A DNA stretch of 64,000 nt from Mesobacillus jeotgali (GTDB lineage Bacteria; Bacillota; Bacilli; Bacillales; Cytobacillaceae). Positions 13,907 through 37,374 of the stretch are shown piece by piece. Made by a program: the position numbers and the translations under genes. The stretch covers positions 2,846,001-2,910,000 of the forward strand of contig NZ_CP109811.1 of NCBI RefSeq assembly GCF_014856545.2, written 5' to 3'. Below the pieces are notes generated by a model. It had not been told where the DNA came from. It saw only the letters and a list, made by a program, of their open reading frames with translations, and did no database searches. How positions within the stretch are numbered: position 1 is the stretch's first letter; each line of letters starts with the position of its first letter.

Positions 13907-13933
13907 AAAGCCAGGCTTATTCAACCTGGCTTT
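13907..13933 (-). terminator. Terminator of fdhD
   Basis: AAAGCCAGG (13907-13915) / CCTGGCTTT (13925-13933) with T residues following on the minus strand. The stem includes the last codons and the stop of fdhD. Confidence 0.8.
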
Positions 13934-14750
13934 CCTTGATTCCGTATTTAGCCTCTGCAACCCGTTCCGGGTGTGTGTATACATTAAGTGATCGATTCCT
14001 GATAAAGCCAATTGTCGTGATCCCCAGTTCCTCTGCTAGCTTCAAGGCAAGTTCAGTGGGAGCTGATTTGGACAATACAATCGGGCAGCCGATTTTGGCT
14101 ACCTTTAATAAAATTTCTGAGGAAATTCGTCCACTGAAAACAATTACTTTATCCTGTATCGAAATATCATTTTTCAAGCAATGCCCAAAAATTTTATCCA
14201 GGGCATTATGGCGACCGATATCCATCCGCGACACAACTGGACCAAACAAACTGCAAAGGGAGGCGTTATGGACTCCCCCAGTATTTTGAAAAAGGTGAGC
14301 GGAATCCTGCATTTCTTCCATGAGCCTGAAGCAATCTTCTACTTCGATTTCCGTCTCTGTTTTGTGCAACTTTTTTGCAGTCAATGCGTCTGTCGCAAAT
14401 ACAAAGCCAGTCCTGCTTGCCCCGCAGCATGAAGTTAAGTAACGCTTTCCCTGTAAGTTCTTATAAACCGGATTCATTTGCGAGGTTTTTACATGAACAA
14501 ATCCTTCTTTTTCCTGGATCCATATATCTTCTATATCTGAATACTTCCTGATGATGCCTTCTGAAGCGAGGTATCCAATGACCATTTCTTCAATATAATC
14601 TGGAGTACATACCATCGTAACAAATTCCTGACCATTCACTTTAATGGTGACAGAATATTCCGTTACGATGCTGTCTTCCAAGCTTTCGGCCCCGCCATCG
14701 CCAAAACGAAGGATTTCCCTTTTTACTTCGACTGGTTTCAAAACAGCCAT
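13917..14750 (-). CDS. fdhD: Formate dehydrogenase accessory sulfurtransferase FdhD
   Basis: Transfers sulfur from a cysteine desulfurase to the molybdenum cofactor before insertion into formate dehydrogenase, a step required for activity. 277 aa, family length. The cysteine loop YLTSCCGASRTGF (near residue 115) carries the sulfur-relay cysteines, and GVHNASLCS plus DIGRHNALDKI (near residues 165-190) are strongly conserved. It lies just downstream of a formate dehydrogenase gene pair and could also serve the second enzyme at 33-35 kb. Confidence 0.95.
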   Translation of the reverse strand: MAVLKPVEVKREILRFGDGGAESLEDSIVTEYSVTIKVNGQEFVTMVCTPDYIEEMVIGYLASEGIIRKYSDIEDIWIQEKEGFVHVKTSQMNPVYKNLQGKRYLTSCCGASRTGFVFATDALTAKKLHKTETEIEVEDCFRLMEEMQDSAHLFQNTGGVHNASLCSLFGPVVSRMDIGRHNALDKIFGHCLKNDISIQDKVIVFSGRISSEILLKVAKIGCPIVLSKSAPTELALKLAEELGITTIGFIRNRSLNVYTHPERVAEAKYGIKESQVE

Positions 14751-14823
14751 CCTCTCTGGTTGAAGTTTTATGCTTTGGAGTTATCTCCTATTATCCATAA
14801 ATCTATATTTTGAAACCTGAAAA

Positions 14824-14859
14824 AGCAGGCGAACAAAGCTGGAATGCTTGCTGCCTGCT
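14824..14859 (-). terminator. Terminator after the DUF1641 gene
   Basis: AGCAGGC (14824-14830) / GCCTGCT (14853-14859) with a T-tract on the minus strand, just past the DUF1641 stop. Confidence 0.7.
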
Positions 14860-14866
14860 CATTGTA

Positions 14867-15424
14867 TTACTTCTCTTCGAGGGTACCTTCCTGGCTCTGG
14901 TGGATATCCTGATTTTCCGGAAGCTGAGTGGTTCTTTCCAGTCCCTCGGTATCTTCACCCATCCCTTTCAGGAACTCAAAAAGTAAAGATAGAGCACGAT
15001 TGATTTCCGGGTCTTTAAAAGAGCGGACAATATCAAAATACCCAAGCTTGTCTTCATCCTCGCTGTCAGTATATTCTGCTACTCTAGCAATGCCAGAATT
15101 CAATTTTAAGAGCAAAGGCTCAAGCTGCTGGACATTGATTGTACCAAGGACGCCAATCATCAGCAGCAGATTCTTGATTGTATTGGTAGCTTCAGGCTTG
15201 TCTGCTGCTTTCACAAGAACATTCAAGACCTTATCTCCTTCACTGAACAATCCATCTAACAGCGACAGCACCCCGCGCTGATTCATATGCTTGAGTATAT
15301 CCATCGACTGTAAAATCGCATCCTTGTTATCAAGCAAGGCAGTCTCGATTTCCTCCAGGTCACTCTTGCGTTTTTGCTCCTCAGTCATCTGTACACGATT
15401 GATGTTAGTGATTGCTTTAGCCAT
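14867..15424 (-). CDS. yrhD: DUF1641 protein associated with formate dehydrogenase (YrhD-like)
   Basis: 185 aa, mostly helical, acidic C-terminus. DUF1641 proteins are encoded beside cytoplasmic formate dehydrogenases, as with yrhD-yrhE in B. subtilis, and are presumed partner or assembly subunits. The start overlaps the last 8 nt of the dehydrogenase gene, implying translational coupling. No cofactor motif is visible. Confidence 0.85.
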
Positions 15425-18374
15425 GCTGGGTACGCTCCTTTTTCACAAGATCTCCTGGAAAGCTGTAATCTGGACGAGCCCACTTCTTTTCGACTTGGAC
15501 ACCGATTTGCGGCTGTGGATTACCGTATCGGAAATTATTCCTCGGCAAAGGATTGATTCCTTCAAATTGGAGGATTTCCATTTTCGCCTTTGTCTCCTTA
15601 TAAGCTGGAGTATCCGTGTTTTTGTCCCCATAGCTGCTTGTCAGAAGATTGATAGCTGCATCTCCCTGGTCGTTCATAGGCAGATAGACTTCCTTTCCTG
15701 CCACTCGATCAGTGACAACACATCTTACCTTCACATTGCCGTATGGAGATGTCAATCTGACAAGTGTTCCATCTTTTATCCCTCTTTCTTCGGCAAGCTC
15801 TGGCGACACCTCAAGGAAAGTTTCAGGAGTCTTTGAGGTGATTCCCTCTGACTTATAAGTCAGGTTACCTTCATGGAAATGCTCAAGCAAGCGGCCATTA
15901 TTGACATGGATATCATATTCTTCTCCATATTGAATCGGGATCGACCATTTTACCGGATAGAGACGTGCTTTCCCATCCGGGAATGGGAAGCCATCCAAAT
16001 ACAATACAGGACTGTCAGTTCCATCCGGCTGCACCGGCCATTGAAGGCTCTTGTACCCTTCAAGGCGTTCATACGTCACCCCAGAGTATATCGGCATAAG
16101 ATTTGCCGCTTCCGCCATGATTTCAGAAGGATGCTCATATGTCCATCCTGCACCAAGGCGGTTGGCGACTTCAATCAGAATCTGCCAATCAGGTTTCGAT
16201 TCACCAACTGGCTCGAAAACCTGATACAAACGCTGAATCCTTCGCTCGGTATTCGTAAACGTGCCTTCTTTTTCAAAGCTCGGGCTTGCTGGCAAAACAA
16301 CGTCTGCAAATTGCGCAGTCCTGGAGAAAAACACATCTTGGACTACAAAGAAGTCAAGCTTCTCATAGCCGGCTTGGACGTGGTTGATATTTGAATCCAC
16401 AAGGCCCATCTCTTCACCCTTGATGTAAAGGGCTTTAAGTGTTTCATTATGCATACCTTCAACCATGTCATGGTTATTGATCCCTGGCTCAGCAGGCAGC
16501 CTGGTTCCCCATGCCTGCTCAAACTTCATGCGGGCTGCTTCATCGGTTACCTTCTGATAACCCGGCAGCGAGTCCGGGCTGCTGCCAAAATCACCTGCGC
16601 CCTGGACATTATTATGTCCTCGCAGTGGATATGCACCTGTTCCTGGACGGCCGTAATTTCCAGTAATCAGCAATAGGTTCGAAATCGCTGTACTGGTGTC
16701 GCTTCCGCCAATATGCTGTGTAACTCCCATTGCCCATAGAGCACAAACGCTTTTTGCTTTATGAATGCTCTCAGCAATCTCAATCAGCGTATCTTTTGAT
16801 AGCCCAGTTGTTTTTTCTGCATATTCCAAAGTGAATCCTTTAAGACTGTCGACGTATTCCGAAAGTCCATTGACTTTATTGTTCAGAAATTCTTCATCAG
16901 CCCAGCCCTGGTCGATAATGTATTTAGTGACAGCGGAAATCCAGACAAGGTCACTGCCTGCCTTAGGCCTTACGAACATATCAGCACGATCAGCCATTTC
17001 ATGTTCACGAAGGTCTGCGACAATCACTTTTTGTCCATTCAGTTTTTGGGCGCGTTTCACCCTGGTTGCAAGGACGGGATGTGCTTCTGCTGTATTAGAC
17101 CCGACGATGATGACCAAATCCGCCATCGCAATATCAGTAATTGATCCAGCATCGCCACCATGTCCAACTGTTCTGAACAAACCTACAGTAGCAGGTGTTT
17201 GGCAATATCGGGAGCAATTGTCTACATTATTAGTGCCAATTACAGACCTTGCCAGTTTTTGCATTAGATATGATTCTTCATTCGTACATTTAGACGAAGT
17301 TATGAAGCCAAGAGAGTCAGGACCATACTCATTCTTGATTTCTGTAAATTTTCTGGAGATAAGATTCAGCGCCTCATCCCACCCCGCTTCCCTGAAGCTG
17401 TCTCCTTCACGAATCAGCGGCTTGGTCAGGCGCTCCTCGCTGTTAACGAAATCCCAACCGAATTTCCCTTTTATACATGTAGAAATTCCGTTGGCTGGAG
17501 CTTCAACCTGCGGCTCGACCTTCAGGATTTCTCGTCCCTTCGTCCACACATCAAAACTGCATCCCACTCCGCAGTATGTGCAAACAGTCTTCGTTTTCTT
17601 GATTCTGGATTCGCGCATAGCGGCTTCCATATCGGAAATCGCCAGGATGGAACCGTAACCTGTCTCGACATTCTTGGTAATTTCAATCATCGGCCGCAAA
17701 GTATCTTTTGCGATTCCTGTTAAAAAGCCGGCTTCGCCTTCCATTCCTTTTTCCATCATTGCATTACATGGACATACCGTTGAACAATGACCACAAGAAA
17801 CACAGGAGGATTCATTGATTGGTACATCATTATCCCAAATGACACGTGGGCGTTCACGTTCCCAATCGATTCTCAGCGTCTCGGTTACCTGTACATCCTG
17901 ACAGGCTTCCACACACCTCCCGCACAAAATACATTGGTCAGGATCATAACGATAAAAAGGGTTTGATTCATCTTTTTCATATGGCTTTTGATCAAATGGG
18001 ATGCTCTGATGATTGATTTTCATTTCTTTTACTGTGTTATGTACCTCGCACATCCCATTATTGTAGTCACAGACTGTACAGTACAATTCATGGTTGAATA
18101 GGATCTTGTCCATCGCCATTGTTTGCGCCTTTTTAACATCCGGCGCCACGGTGTCGATTGTATCCCCATCCTTCATGATTGTCGAACAAGACCTGACCAT
18201 TTCTCCGTTCACTTCTACAATACAAGTGTCACAAGTCTCGATCGGGCCAAGGCTTGGATGATAGCATACACTTGGCACTTCAATCGAGCTATCTGAAAGG
18301 TATTGAAGGATTGTTTGATTTTCTTTAGCCGCGACGTCAGCACCGTTGATTGTTACATTTATTTTGCCAGACAA
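15417..18374 (-). CDS. yrhE: Formate dehydrogenase alpha subunit, cysteine type, with N-terminal Fe-S domains
   Basis: 985 aa. In order: a 2Fe-2S ferredoxin domain ([15 protein letters not shown], residues about 38-52), a His/Cys Fe-S segment near 100, two 4Fe-4S ferredoxin motifs ([14 protein letters not shown] and [11 protein letters not shown], about 145-205), the catalytic 4Fe-4S motif [13 protein letters not shown] near 265, and the molybdopterin domains. The molybdenum ligand sits in [18 protein letters not shown], so this enzyme uses cysteine. It oxidises formate to CO2, probably passing electrons to a soluble acceptor such as NAD(P). Followed by the DUF1641 gene and fdhD. Confidence 0.95.
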
Positions 18375-20635: not shown

Positions 20636-20717
20636 TACAAATTTTTAAAATTAGCCATTTACAATACAGCCTATTTACATTAAGATGATTTTGAAAACAA
20701 CAACTGCATAGGTTTTT

Positions 20718-20799
20718 GCACTAGGGGAGCTTTTGGCTGAGAAGAACTTTGTTCTGACCCTTATTACCCGATCTGGATAATACCAGCGTGGGGAAGTGC
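20718..20799 (+). promoter_or_regulatory. TPP riboswitch (THI element)
   Basis: The conserved TPP aptamer is present: closing stem GCACT (20718-20722) / AGTGC (20795-20799), GGGGAGC, CTGAGA (20737-20742), ACCC, then the GATCTGGATAAT and CCAGCGTGGGGAAG blocks. It precedes the ykoFEDC thiamine-precursor transporter. Binding of thiamine pyrophosphate should reduce expression. Confidence 0.95.
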
Positions 20800-20848
20800 A
20801 GGCGAAGCTCTTCGTTATATCTCTTTTTTTATCTGACGATAGAATTCA

Positions 20849-32954: not shown

Positions 32955-35015
32955 CTATGCGATTGTTTCAATTTTCACGGCACAAGCCTTGAATTCTGCT
33001 GTCCCTGAAATTGGGTCATATTCATTCAGGGTAAGTACATTTGTCGGAACCTCGGACCAGTGGAAACTCATGAACACGAGTCCAGGAACAACCTGAGCAG
33101 TTATTTTTGCTTTTACGTCAAGCGTACCTCGTCGTGAACTCACCCTGACGAGATCTCCATCATTGATATGGAGGCGAAGTGCATCTTCAGGATGAATATC
33201 CAGGGTTTCCTCTGTCTGTTTAATTTTCACCCCTGCTGCGTAGTGCCGTGTTTGTGTATGAGTATTGTAGGACTCATACCGTCTGCCCGTTGTCAGGGTA
33301 AAAGGAAAGTGCTCATCTGGCTGTTCTAAAGGCGGTGTGAATTCAACTGGTACAAAACTGGATCGTTTTTTATTTTCACTTTCACCATGGAACCTTTCGT
33401 GAAGGACTTTCGTGCCTGGATGAGCCTCATCAGGACAAGGGTAGTGGATTCCATACTCTTTTTCAAGACGTTCATATGATATGCCCCCATACATCTCCCA
33501 AGCAAGTTCCCTCACTTCATTCCAAATTTCTTCGCTTGATTGATAACTCATCGGGTAACCCATTTTCGTCGAAAGTTCACACAATATCTCCCAGTCTTCT
33601 TTCACTCCAGACTGGGCAGTGACCGCAGTGCGTACACGCTGGACTCTCCTGTCTGTATTGGTGTATGTCCCGTCAACTTCGCCCCATGACTTGGCAGGCA
33701 GTACGACATCTGCCATCTCGGCCGTTTCTGTCATAAAAATATCCTGGACGATGAGTAAATCGAGTTTTTCCAATAGACTTCTGGTATGGTTCATATGAAC
33801 GTCTGCGACCAACGGATTTTCTCCTATACAATACAAGGCTTTAATTTCACCTGTATCAATCTTATCGAAGGTCCTCGTCTGGGTGTCACCAACTTTTTTG
33901 CTGATTTTAATATTCCATAATTTCTCGAAACGGTCACGATATTCGTCATCCAATAGGCTGACAGCACCAGTAAGCTGGTTCGGCAGGCATCCCATGTCCC
34001 CCGCTCCCTGGACATTATTCTGACCCCTTAAAGGCATGATGCCTGAACCTTTTTTGCCAATCTGGCCAGTCAGTAAAGCAAGGTTCGCAATATCAAACAC
34101 ATTATTCACTCCACAGTGATGTTCGGTAATGCCGAGTGTGTATGCAATCATCGACCTGCTGGCCTTTGCATACAGGTGAGCAACCTCAATGATATCTGTT
34201 GGCGCTAACCCGGTGATTTCTGCTGAATATTCTGGTGTATAGCGTTCAACCTTTGACAGCAATACATCAAAATCCTCAGTATGCCTGCCAATGAATCCTT
34301 GGTCATACAGCTTTTCTTTTATAATAATCCGGATCATCCCGTTGATCAGCGCAATATCTGTTCCAACGTTAATTTGCAGATGTTTATGTGCTGACTTGAC
34401 CATATCGATTCTTCTTGGGTCAATGACGATGATCTTAAGACCGCCCTTGGCAGCTTTTTTCATTCTATTTCCTATGATCGGATGTGCTTCAGTCGTATTG
34501 GAACCCATAAGTAAAAGCACTTCGGCATCATCTATATCTTCCAATGTGTTTGTTGGGAAACCGCTTCCAAAAACAGTCGCCAGACCGGCAACACTAGGAG
34601 CGTGTCAGGTTCGGTTACAGCCATCAATATTGTTGCTTCCGATTGCAGTCCTCATAAACTTCTGGGTAACGTAGTTCGATTCATTGGTAGTCCGTGCGCA
34701 AGCAAACATCGAAATCGCCTCGGGACCAAAATCCGCCTTAATTCCTGTCAATCGGCCTGCTATGTAATCATACGCTTCCTCCCAGGTAGCCTTTACCAGC
34801 TCTCCTGCTTTCCGGATCATAGGTGTATTCAATCTTTTCGGAGCATGTACATATTGATAGGCAAAAGCTCCTTTTATACATGTTTGTCCTTTATTTACAG
34901 GTGCGTCTTTATCGCCTCTGATTTTCACTATTTTATTATTTTCTACATCCAATATTAAACCGCATCCTGTTCCACAATAACCACAGACCGTCTTTACCTG
35001 GCTAATCAATGACAT
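32955..35015 (-). CDS. fdhF: Formate dehydrogenase, predicted selenoprotein with in-frame UGA (FdhF-like)
   Basis: Reading through the TGA at 34605-34607 gives one 686-aa FdhF-type enzyme. The N-terminal 4Fe-4S motif (CGYCGTGCGLILDV, then GQTCIKGAF) is followed by molybdopterin domains including [23 protein letters not shown] and the C-terminal dinucleotide-binding domain. The TGA falls exactly at the molybdenum ligand: NNIDGCNRT-U-HAPSVAGL, residue 137, as in E. coli FdhF. A SECIS-like hairpin follows at 34576-34592. Without decoding, two fragments (34605-35015 and 32955-34544) would result. GGAGGGG precedes the ATG. Single-subunit form without N-terminal ferredoxin domains, unlike the 985-aa paralogue. 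Needs selABCD elsewhere in the genome, not seen here. Confidence 0.9.
34576..34607 (-). promoter_or_regulatory. Bacterial SECIS element and Sec codon
   Basis: The TGA (34605-34607) is followed by 12 nt, then GTTGCCGGTCTGGCGAC (34576-34592 on the minus strand): a 6-bp stem GUUGCC/GGCGAC with apical loop GGUCU. The E. coli fdhF SECIS has the same 12-nt spacing and the same GGUCU loop. This would bind SelB and direct Sec insertion. Confidence 0.85.
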
Positions 35016-35105: not shown

Positions 35106-35123
35106 TTGTCATATTTCTGACAA
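35106..35123. promoter_or_regulatory. Palindrome upstream of fdhF (putative operator)
   Basis: TTGTCATATTTCTGACAA is a perfect 6+6+6 inverted repeat 91 nt before the fdhF start, with a further TTGTC half-site (minus strand) 11 nt away. Regulator unknown. Confidence 0.5.
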
Positions 35124-35175
35124 TTTATCGACAAATTCTGATAGCTAGACGGGATGTTGTTAATCATAAAAAAAT

Positions 35176-35205
35176 AAGGCAGGAGTTAACCCCTGCCTTA
35201 TTTTT
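35176..35205 (-). terminator. Terminator of the sensor kinase gene
   Basis: AAGGCAGG (35176-35183) / CCTGCCTT (35192-35199) with A and T tracts on both sides. Confidence 0.82.
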
Positions 35206-35215
35206 GTAATGTATA

Positions 35216-37374
35216 CTATGCAATTTTTGCCGGAAGCATGATCTTGAATGTTGTTCCTTTGTTTTGTTCGCTCTCGATATAGACTTTGCCGTTGTGGCTT
35301 TCAATAATCTTGAAGCTGACCATCAAGCCGAGTCCATTTCCATTTTTCTTGGTTGTATAAAACGGTTCACCAATTTTCTTCAAAGTTTCTGGAGGTATTC
35401 CAACACCGGTATCTTTGATGGAAATGACGACATTGTCATCCTGTATTTCGGTTTTTACCTTTAAATCTCCGCCGTCAGGCATTGCTTCGATTCCGTTTTT
35501 TATAAAATTCAAGAATACTTGCTTCAATCGGTTTTCATCACATTCAATCTGGATAATTTCCTCAGTGGCATCAAAATCCAGTTTGACATTCCTTTTTCGT
35601 GCTTCGAATTTCAGCATAGAAACCACATTTTGGACAATCGGTATGATATTCTGTTCCTCTAGCTCCACAGCCTTAGGTTTTGCAAGTACCATGAACTCTT
35701 CAACAATATTATTGACTCTGTCAATTTCATCAAGGATGATTTCAATAAATTCCTGGCGTTGCGGGTCTGTTTCGTCAAGCTGCAGGAATTCTGCATATCC
35801 TTTCATCGATGTCAGCGGATTTCTGATTTCATGGGCAACACCAGCCGCCAGCTGGCCAACAGCAGCAAGCTTATCCTGGCGGTGAAGCAATTCCTCTGAC
35901 TTTTTCTTCTCTGTGATATCATTACGTATTGCAAGATACTGATATGGCTTCCCATTTTCATTCAAGAAAGGGACAATCGTGGTAGCCACCCAATAAAATG
36001 AACCATCCTTGCCCTGTTTCGGATATCGCCTTTCCAAACCTGACCTGAACCAATGGTTTTCCACAGGTTTTTAAAGAACTCTTTGGAATGTAATCCAGAA
36101 TTCAATATGCTGTGGTCATTGCCAATCAATTCTTCCCTACTGTATTTAGAGATCTCACAGAATTTATCGTTCACACTTTTGATAATTCCCTTTTCGTCAG
36201 TAAAAGCAACGATAGAGGATTGGTCGAGGGCAAAATTGATATCACTGACCTCTTTCAGTGTTTCTTTCAGGCTCGCCTCTGCCTGCTTTCTTTGAGTTAT
36301 ATCAGAACGAATCGAGACATATTGATATGGCTTGCCTTTGCTATTCAGGAATGGAACAATCGTGGTATCAACCCAATAATAAGAACCATCCTTCTTCTTA
36401 TTTCGGATTTCACCCTTCCAAACCTCACCGGAACCAATCGTTTTCCACATATTCTTGAAAAATTCTTTAGCATGAAATCCAGAATTCAAGATCGAGTGAT
36501 TTTGACCTAATAGTTCTCCTTCACTGTAACCTGAAATCTCAATAAACTTTTCATTAACATAGGTGATATTACCTTTAGGGTCAGTAATGGCAACAATCGC
36601 CGATGAATTAAGAGCATCTGTAATATCTTTTAAGTTTGTATCTGAAACTGCCAGCCTTTTGCTGATCAACGCACTTGAACCGATTAAACCAGCAAGGATG
36701 AGCACAGAGATAAAAACAATTAAATAACTGATTAACGACTCTGGGATTCCAGTCTGTTCTACGACCCCGTCCCTCAAATTAATCGAGGAAGCTCTTGTTA
36801 GAAGAAAATGACCTTCAACAATCGCAGCAGTAACGACAAGAGCGCTTAGTGGTTTAATCCATCCATGATCTCCTTGAGTGAAACTTTTCGAAAAGAAAAG
36901 CATCCAAAAGGAAAAATAGAATGATCCGAATACAAGGAGGAGGGCAATCACTAAAATGGATGGCTCATAACTGAAATCCAATTTCATTGAGTACATTCCC
37001 AGGATATGGACCACCAGGACTGCAAGCATCATGAACAAACTTCCTGCAATCAAATTGCTCTTTTTCACTGTCTTGCCAGTCATTGTATAGAACGCCATTG
37101 CAGTGAAAGAAATAACCAAGATTATCGATAAGACCGTTATTGAAATACGGTAAGAGACAGTGCCGTTGAGATTCAGAGCAAGCATTCCAAAGAAATTCAT
37201 CACCCAAACCCCTATGCCAAGTGAAAAAGTCCCACCTAAAAAAAGAAATCGTTTATTACGATCAGAAGACTTGATAAGACTGAATAAATCAAGTGCTGTA
37301 TAAGATGACATGACTGTCAATAAGATGGCTACTAGCAGTAGTATTGGATTAAAGGATAATTCCGGATTATCCAT
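35216..37374 (-). pseudogene. MHYT-like/PAS/PAS sensor histidine kinase, frameshifted
   Basis: Two overlapping frames make one protein of about 719 aa: seven transmembrane segments with degenerate MHYT motifs (residues about 10-235), two PAS domains (about 250-370 and 375-490), a HisKA domain with the phospho-acceptor in AAGVAHEIRNPLTSMKGYAE, and an HATPase_c domain (NGLGLMVSF...). The frame breaks in PAS2 near 36017-36019; adding one T to the TTT run there gives WKGDIRKQGKDGSFYW, aligning with PAS1 WKGEIRNKKKDGSYYW. No response regulator is adjacent, so it resembles orphan sporulation kinases. Broken gene or sequencing error. Confidence 0.82.

What the first reader, a model, noticed from the sequence alone, without database searches (positions are those of the whole stretch)
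32955..35015. Selenocysteine formate dehydrogenase in a Bacillaceae genome
A TGA at 34605-34607 interrupts an otherwise continuous FdhF-type reading frame exactly at the molybdenum-ligand codon (NNIDGCNRT-U-HAPSVAGL). Both sides are in the same frame with no other stop. A stem-loop with apical GGUCU begins 12 nt after the TGA, matching the E. coli fdhF SECIS in spacing and loop. Known: E. coli FdhF uses Sec140 and SelB binds this hairpin. B. subtilis lacks Sec decoding, so the trait is unusual for the group. Automated annotation would split the gene into two fragments.
Basis: partly seen in the sequence, partly recalled or inferred. Interest (0 to 1): 0.92.

Follow-up and report, generated by a model that had tools for sequence, protein, structure and literature searches.

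The report
Selenocysteine formate dehydrogenase of a bacillus
This is a real gene for a selenium-containing formate-oxidising enzyme that is read through an internal stop codon; the reading is right, but in this group of bacilli it is common rather than surprising.

Summary
The minus-strand frame 35015..32955 encodes a 686-residue FdhF-type formate dehydrogenase with one in-frame TGA, at 34607..34605, at the active-site position. In 110 of 110 examined family loci the codon is TGA with GGTCT exactly 18 nt downstream. Synonymous diversity is the lowest of the gene just after the TGA. The apical stem pairs in all 77 distinct aligned sequences, with U-A/C-G exchange. The UGA is almost certainly decoded as selenocysteine.

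What fails is "unusual for the group": SelA is above cut-off in 172 of 193 family species and 96 of 199 sampled across the order, and selenoproteins of Bacillales were tabulated in 2006. The hairpin matches E. coli's in loop and spacing but is predicted to lack its bulged U. The genome has three formate dehydrogenase genes with an in-frame TGA, and the window also holds a Cys-type formate dehydrogenase with DUF1641 and fdhD genes. A solid new member of a known kind, low surprise.

The parts
32955..35015 (-). fdhF1: FdhF-type formate dehydrogenase, 686 residues with TGA read as Sec; ATG start, TAG stop
   Evidence: One in-frame TGA; TIGR01591 782 bits, cut-off 666.25, with C in place of U; three Pfam domains
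34605..34607 (-). In-frame TGA, codon 137, read as selenocysteine
   Evidence: TGA in 110 of 110 loci
34576..34592 (-). Apical SECIS hairpin, 6-bp stem and GGUCU loop, 12 nt after the TGA
   Evidence: Fold; 100% of cells paired in 77 distinct rows, exchange at columns 18/30
34563..34601 (-). Possible lower helix enclosing the apical hairpin (weakly supported)
   Evidence: 90.9% of cells paired, no change on both sides, 27 of 77 rows unpaired at one pair; absent from the consensus fold
34845..35000 (-). [4Fe-4S]-binding domain (PF04879), residues 6-57
35170..35205 (-). Terminator-like inverted repeat between the upstream kinase gene and fdhF1
   Evidence: 6 terminator-like sites found in the region, 1.9 expected
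35216..37374 (-). MHYT-PAS sensor histidine kinase gene upstream, in two overlapping pieces (frameshifted here)
   Evidence: one 719-aa ORF in L129; same-strand neighbour of fdhF in 63 of 80 named loci
15417..18374 (-). Cys-type formate dehydrogenase alpha, 985 aa, same window (context, not part of the recoding)
   Evidence: TIGR01591 845.7 bits; no stop inside the match

Best explanation
fdhF1 is an ordinary bacterial selenoprotein gene. SelB carrying Sec-tRNA binds the GGUCU hairpin 18 nt after the UGA, and the ribosome inserts selenocysteine at residue 137, the metal-ligand position of a single-subunit molybdopterin formate dehydrogenase with one [4Fe-4S] domain. Shown by sequence: the frame, the codon, the constrained hairpin and all four decoding genes. 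Inferred: actual Sec insertion, Sec as metal ligand, formate as substrate, and a separate electron partner, since the gene stands alone behind a terminator-like repeat.
For: All four decoding genes over cut-off in the same genome. TGA and GGTCT at 18 nt in 110 of 110 loci. Codons +6 to +8 are GCC GGT CTG in 93 of 93 unique sequences; the lowest synonymous diversity among 676 windows starts at +5, +4 and +6. Apical stem paired in every cell of 77 distinct rows with U-A/C-G exchange. A TGA FdhF is listed in 128 of 172 selA-positive and 2 of 21 selA-negative species. Listed selD genes: 143 with TGA, all in selA-positive species; 7 without, all in selA-negative species. Domain and structure matches to formate dehydrogenases.
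Against: No protein-level data. Single-sequence folds are weak. Two covariation measures do not exceed shuffles: pairs changed on both sides (2 against 1.5) and further pair types (7 against 7.5); the shuffles ignore relatedness. 44 selA-positive species have no TGA FdhF in the capped list, 41 of them with a listed TGA selD. The two selA-negative exceptions are assemblies 80-81% complete. One listed family copy (G162) also has a TAG. The electron partner is unknown.
Confidence: 0.94

Rival explanations
1. The TGA is a sequencing error or the mark of a decaying pseudogene of a Cys-type enzyme.
For: A neighbouring kinase gene in this window is frameshifted, so local errors or decay occur.
Against: TGA in 110 of 110 loci and an otherwise open frame kept at 72-97% protein identity.
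Confidence: 0.01
2. The UGA is read by something other than Sec (suppression, or UGA as Trp), or simply ends a short product.
For: No protein data exist here.
Against: Sec machinery and TGA genes co-occur; the RNA constraint sits just after the codon.
Confidence: 0.03
3. The hairpin followed by U-rich sequence also works as an internal transcription terminator, so that stopping at UGA would lower the message.
For: The terminator scan lists the hairpin at 34592..34576.
Against: The U-tract is broken by A or G at codon +11 in many relatives.
Confidence: 0.04
4. fdhF1 is the formate dehydrogenase subunit of a hydrogen-dependent CO2 reductase or formate-hydrogen lyase.
For: The best solved match is FdhF of the hydrogen-dependent CO2 reductase, 7qv7.
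Against: No [FeFe] hydrogenase large-domain match in the genome. None of the 22 most frequent neighbour clusters in 80 loci looked, by eye, like a hydrogenase. [NiFe] hydrogenases were not searched.
Confidence: 0.05

Closest known systems
E. coli FdhF (formate dehydrogenase H), 1aa6
   Same: Same domains over residues 6-686, 536 bits; GGUCU loop 18 nt after the TGA
   Different: E. coli hairpin folds with one unpaired U on the 5' side; here the stem is flush
FdhF of the hydrogen-dependent CO2 reductase, 7qv7
   Same: Best solved match, 692 bits over two stretches
   Different: No [FeFe] hydrogenase found in this genome
B. subtilis YjgC (8rqz) and the Cys-type enzyme of this window
   Same: Same catalytic domains, 466 bits to YjgC
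   Different: Longer (985 aa), extra N-terminal sequence, no stop codon at the site, DUF1641 gene beside it in this window
General bacterial SECIS model (PMC13188914, section 5)
   Same: Loop, stem, G position and spacing fit
   Different: Minimal 17-nt hairpin is -7.4 kcal/mol, just short of the -7.5 limit; 21 nt gives -8.6

Membership tests
Formate dehydrogenase alpha, TIGR01591 | Score over the curated cut-off | tested here: met
   782 against 666.25 bits
Formate dehydrogenase alpha, TIGR01591 | Formate oxidation activity | not testable with these tools
   No assay
Sec-decoding trait | selA, selB, tRNA-Sec and selD in the genome | tested here: met
Selenoprotein | In-frame UGA at the UHxP motif | tested here: met
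   TGA then H-A-P; motif from PMC13188914 passage
Selenoprotein | Selenium in the protein | not testable with these tools
   Needs 75Se label or mass spectrometry
General bacterial SECIS | Loop 3-9 nt, stem 4-16 bp, G in the first two loop positions, spacing 16-37 nt | tested here: met
   Loop 5, stem 6, G first, spacing 18
General bacterial SECIS | Free energy at most -7.5 kcal/mol | tested here: inconclusive
   -7.4 for 17 nt, -8.6 for 21 nt, -15.6 for 48 nt
E. coli-type SECIS | Bulged U17 (PMC8659212, passages) | tested here: not met
   U17 faces A31 (G31 in one row) and the stem is predicted flush; E. coli and this genome's fdnG fold with an unpaired U
Hydrogen-dependent CO2 reductase | [FeFe] hydrogenase partner | tested here: not met
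   PF02906: no match in the genome; the control rang in Thermotoga maritima

The most novel reading that the evidence does not exclude
One SelB in this bacterium serves two kinds of SECIS with the same GGUCU loop and the same 18-nt spacing: an E. coli-like hairpin with an unpaired U (fdnG) and a flush-stem hairpin without one (fdhF1 and its paralogue). The bulged U17 reported as required in E. coli would then be a lineage-specific demand of SelB, and this group offers natural paired substrates to test it.
Probability: 0.45. Interest if true: 0.4.

Novelty: new member of a known kind. Interest (0 to 1): 0.22.

Why it matters
It is a correct selenoprotein call from raw sequence. It also shows that Sec decoding is a common trait of this bacillus family (172 of 193 species with selA), so gene callers that stop at TGA would truncate formate dehydrogenase and SelD in much of it. 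The match between TGA in SelD and presence of selA, and the flush hairpin, make SelB recognition testable in spore-forming bacilli.

Tried and rejected
Single-sequence folding of 40-72 nt was uninformative, so I relied on comparison. A palindrome upstream of fdhF1 (35106..35123) was tested in 76 of the 80 named loci: 13 had at most 2 mismatches against 1 of 76 in shuffles, most near -106, but chiefly the half nearer the gene recurs, and in the window it overlaps a promoter-like match; not pursued. The hairpin as an internal terminator is unlikely because the U-tract varies. Paper searches listed no paper on Sec in Mesobacillus, Neobacillus or Cytobacillus among the rows shown; several lists were capped (20 of 3,324; 20 of 230), so absence is not shown. 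PMC5029168, PMC12013277, PMC5330540 and PMC1273633 were searched for terms only. Wrong inputs: the L041 stretch and the L071 stretch had wrong coordinates; alignment A1 was not used and the E. coli hairpin was refolded. One search was a script failure, redone, whose relaxed pattern still found none of six missing sites; one search found them. The confidence now stated rests on the same evidence.

Full report
What is there. On the minus strand, 35015 to 32955, one frame runs from ATG to TAG with a single earlier in-frame stop, TGA at codon 137 (34607..34605). A plain ORF list splits it into 136 and 529 aa. Read with TGA as Sec (C in the searches), it scores 782 bits on TIGR01591, cut-off 666.25, and has the Fe4S4, molybdopterin and dinucleotide-binding domains. 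Its best solved matches are FdhF of the hydrogen-dependent CO2 reductase (7qv7), 9t1s, 7bkb and E. coli FdhF (1aa6). The two alignments printed place residue 137 opposite a Cys (7qv7) and an X (9t1s).

Organism. The window lies in a 4.84-Mb single-contig genome. Nine of the 80 named loci kept are at 86% identity or more: four Mesobacillus (boroniphilus, selenatarsenatis, two subterraneus), three Bacillus sp. strains (ISL-41 at 97%, ISL-45 at 95%, ISL-55), one titled Cytobacillus oceanisediminis and one titled Chryseobacterium. That the organism is a Mesobacillus is therefore my inference. Mesobacillus is in Bacillaceae. Titles naming distant genera (Chryseobacterium, Pseudomonas, Paenibacillus) look mislabelled, also an inference.

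Decoding machinery. tRNA-Sec lies at C1:1994299-1994391, 67.1 bits against a gathering score of 47, called tRNA-SeC with anticodon tca by ARAGORN. selA is at 2597243-2598625, selB at 2820741-2822603, with SelB winged-helix domains, and selD at 2599159-2600085. All are over their cut-offs. selD itself has a TGA (L153:9190) in the motif TGA-G-C-K, the UxxK motif given for Sec-SelD in PMC13188914 (passage).

Codon and hairpin across relatives. I examined 110 loci: 30 from unnamed family genomes, own copy included, and 80 named (297 matched, best 80 kept). The two sets overlap, and there are 93 unique coding sequences. A first pattern found 104 of the 110 plus E. coli; the six others, which have H for N in the pattern, also carry TGA. 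In all 110 GGTCT begins 18 nt after it. Codons +6, +7 and +8 are GCC, GGT and CTG in 93 of 93; elsewhere in these genes GCC is 22% of Ala, GGT 31% of Gly and CTG 14% of Leu codons. Of 676 windows of eleven codons the three lowest in synonymous diversity start at +5, +4 and +6; the one from +1 to +11 ranks 8th.

Covariation. In alignment A2 (112 rows: the window, the 110 loci and the paralogue; 77 distinct) the apical stem is paired in 100% of cells. The 18/30 pair is U-A in 53, C-G in 20 and U-G in 4 distinct rows, and the paralogue has a second compensated pair. This window has the U-G form. Columns 18 and 30 need at least 6 and 8 changes on a tree built without the hairpin. The covariation score (0.138 against 0.103) and cells changed on both sides (21 against 6.9) exceed all 500 shuffles; pairs changed on both sides (2 against 1.5) and further pair types (7 against 7.5) do not. 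The lower helix is weak: 90.9% of cells paired, no double change, and absent from the consensus fold.

Co-occurrence. selA is over cut-off in 172 of 193 family species. Among 150 listed selD matches 143 carry TGA, all in selA-positive species, and 7 do not, all in selA-negative species. With own selD, 169 of 172 selA-positive species show at least one of the two TGA genes. In 199 species drawn from the order, selA is over cut-off in 96. 'Unusual for the group' is therefore wrong.

Difference from E. coli. E. coli fdhF has the same loop and spacing, but its hairpin folds with one unpaired U on the 5' side, and a review states that U17 and G23 bind SelB and that mutating either abolishes decoding (PMC8659212, passages). 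Here U17 faces A31 and the stem is predicted flush. U17 is the second base of a Val codon, so its invariance may come from coding; the 18/30 exchange is at two third-codon positions. The same genome's fdnG hairpin has GGUCU at 18 nt and folds with an unpaired U. These are small, weakly stable folds (z -0.7 and -1.3 for E. coli and fdnG).

Setting and likely role. Of 7 matches to this protein in the genome, 3 contain a TGA: this gene; a paralogue at C1:4411342-4413372 (52% identity) behind genes for an MFS transporter (L-lactate type by NCBIfam) and FdhD; and an FdnG-type enzyme (TIGR01553, 1310 bits) followed by genes like FDH beta, gamma and FdhE, these three below their cut-offs. Of the 4 without TGA, one is in this window: a 985-aa enzyme with Cys at the site, followed by DUF1641 and fdhD genes. 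fdhF1 stands alone, with a terminator-like repeat before it. None of the 22 most frequent neighbour clusters looked by eye like an electron-transfer partner; no family scan was made of them. No [FeFe] hydrogenase was found. Formate oxidation with a separate partner is the likeliest role, by inference.

Literature. Table 2 of PMC1794560 lists 3 selenoproteins in 3 families for Firmicutes/Bacillales (passages). PMC13188914 calls FdhA the most widely distributed selenoprotein family among bacteria (passage; section 5 read). The kind is long known.

Verdict. Observation confirmed, mechanism almost certainly right, surprise absent. The one detail for a specialist is a flush SECIS beside a bulged one in the same genome.

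Noticed in passing
window 35216..37374 (-): MHYT-PAS-PAS sensor histidine kinase upstream of fdhF1 is in two overlapping pieces here but one 719-aa ORF in relative L129 (3641-5800): a frameshift or a sequencing error. The kinase cluster lies on the same strand as fdhF in 63 of 80 named loci.
   Followed up: partly
window 13917..18374 (-): Cys-type formate dehydrogenase (985 aa) with DUF1641 and FdhD genes, about 15 kb from the Sec-type gene.
   Followed up: partly
L162:3130-9152 (own genome, C1:4684000-4698000): FdnG-type formate dehydrogenase with in-frame TGA (8582) and an E. coli-like bulged hairpin, followed by beta, gamma and FdhE-like genes.
   Followed up: partly
family genomes G067, G166, G167, G169, G175, G176, G192: These selA-negative species keep a selD without TGA, suggesting selD kept for another selenium use after Sec loss.
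   Followed up: no
window 35106..35123: Palindrome TTGTCA-N6-TGACAA upstream of fdhF1, overlapping a promoter-like match; partly kept in relatives (13 of 76 with at most 2 mismatches, 1 of 76 shuffled).
   Followed up: partly
window 20713..20811 (+): TPP riboswitch, 80.3 bits.
   Followed up: no
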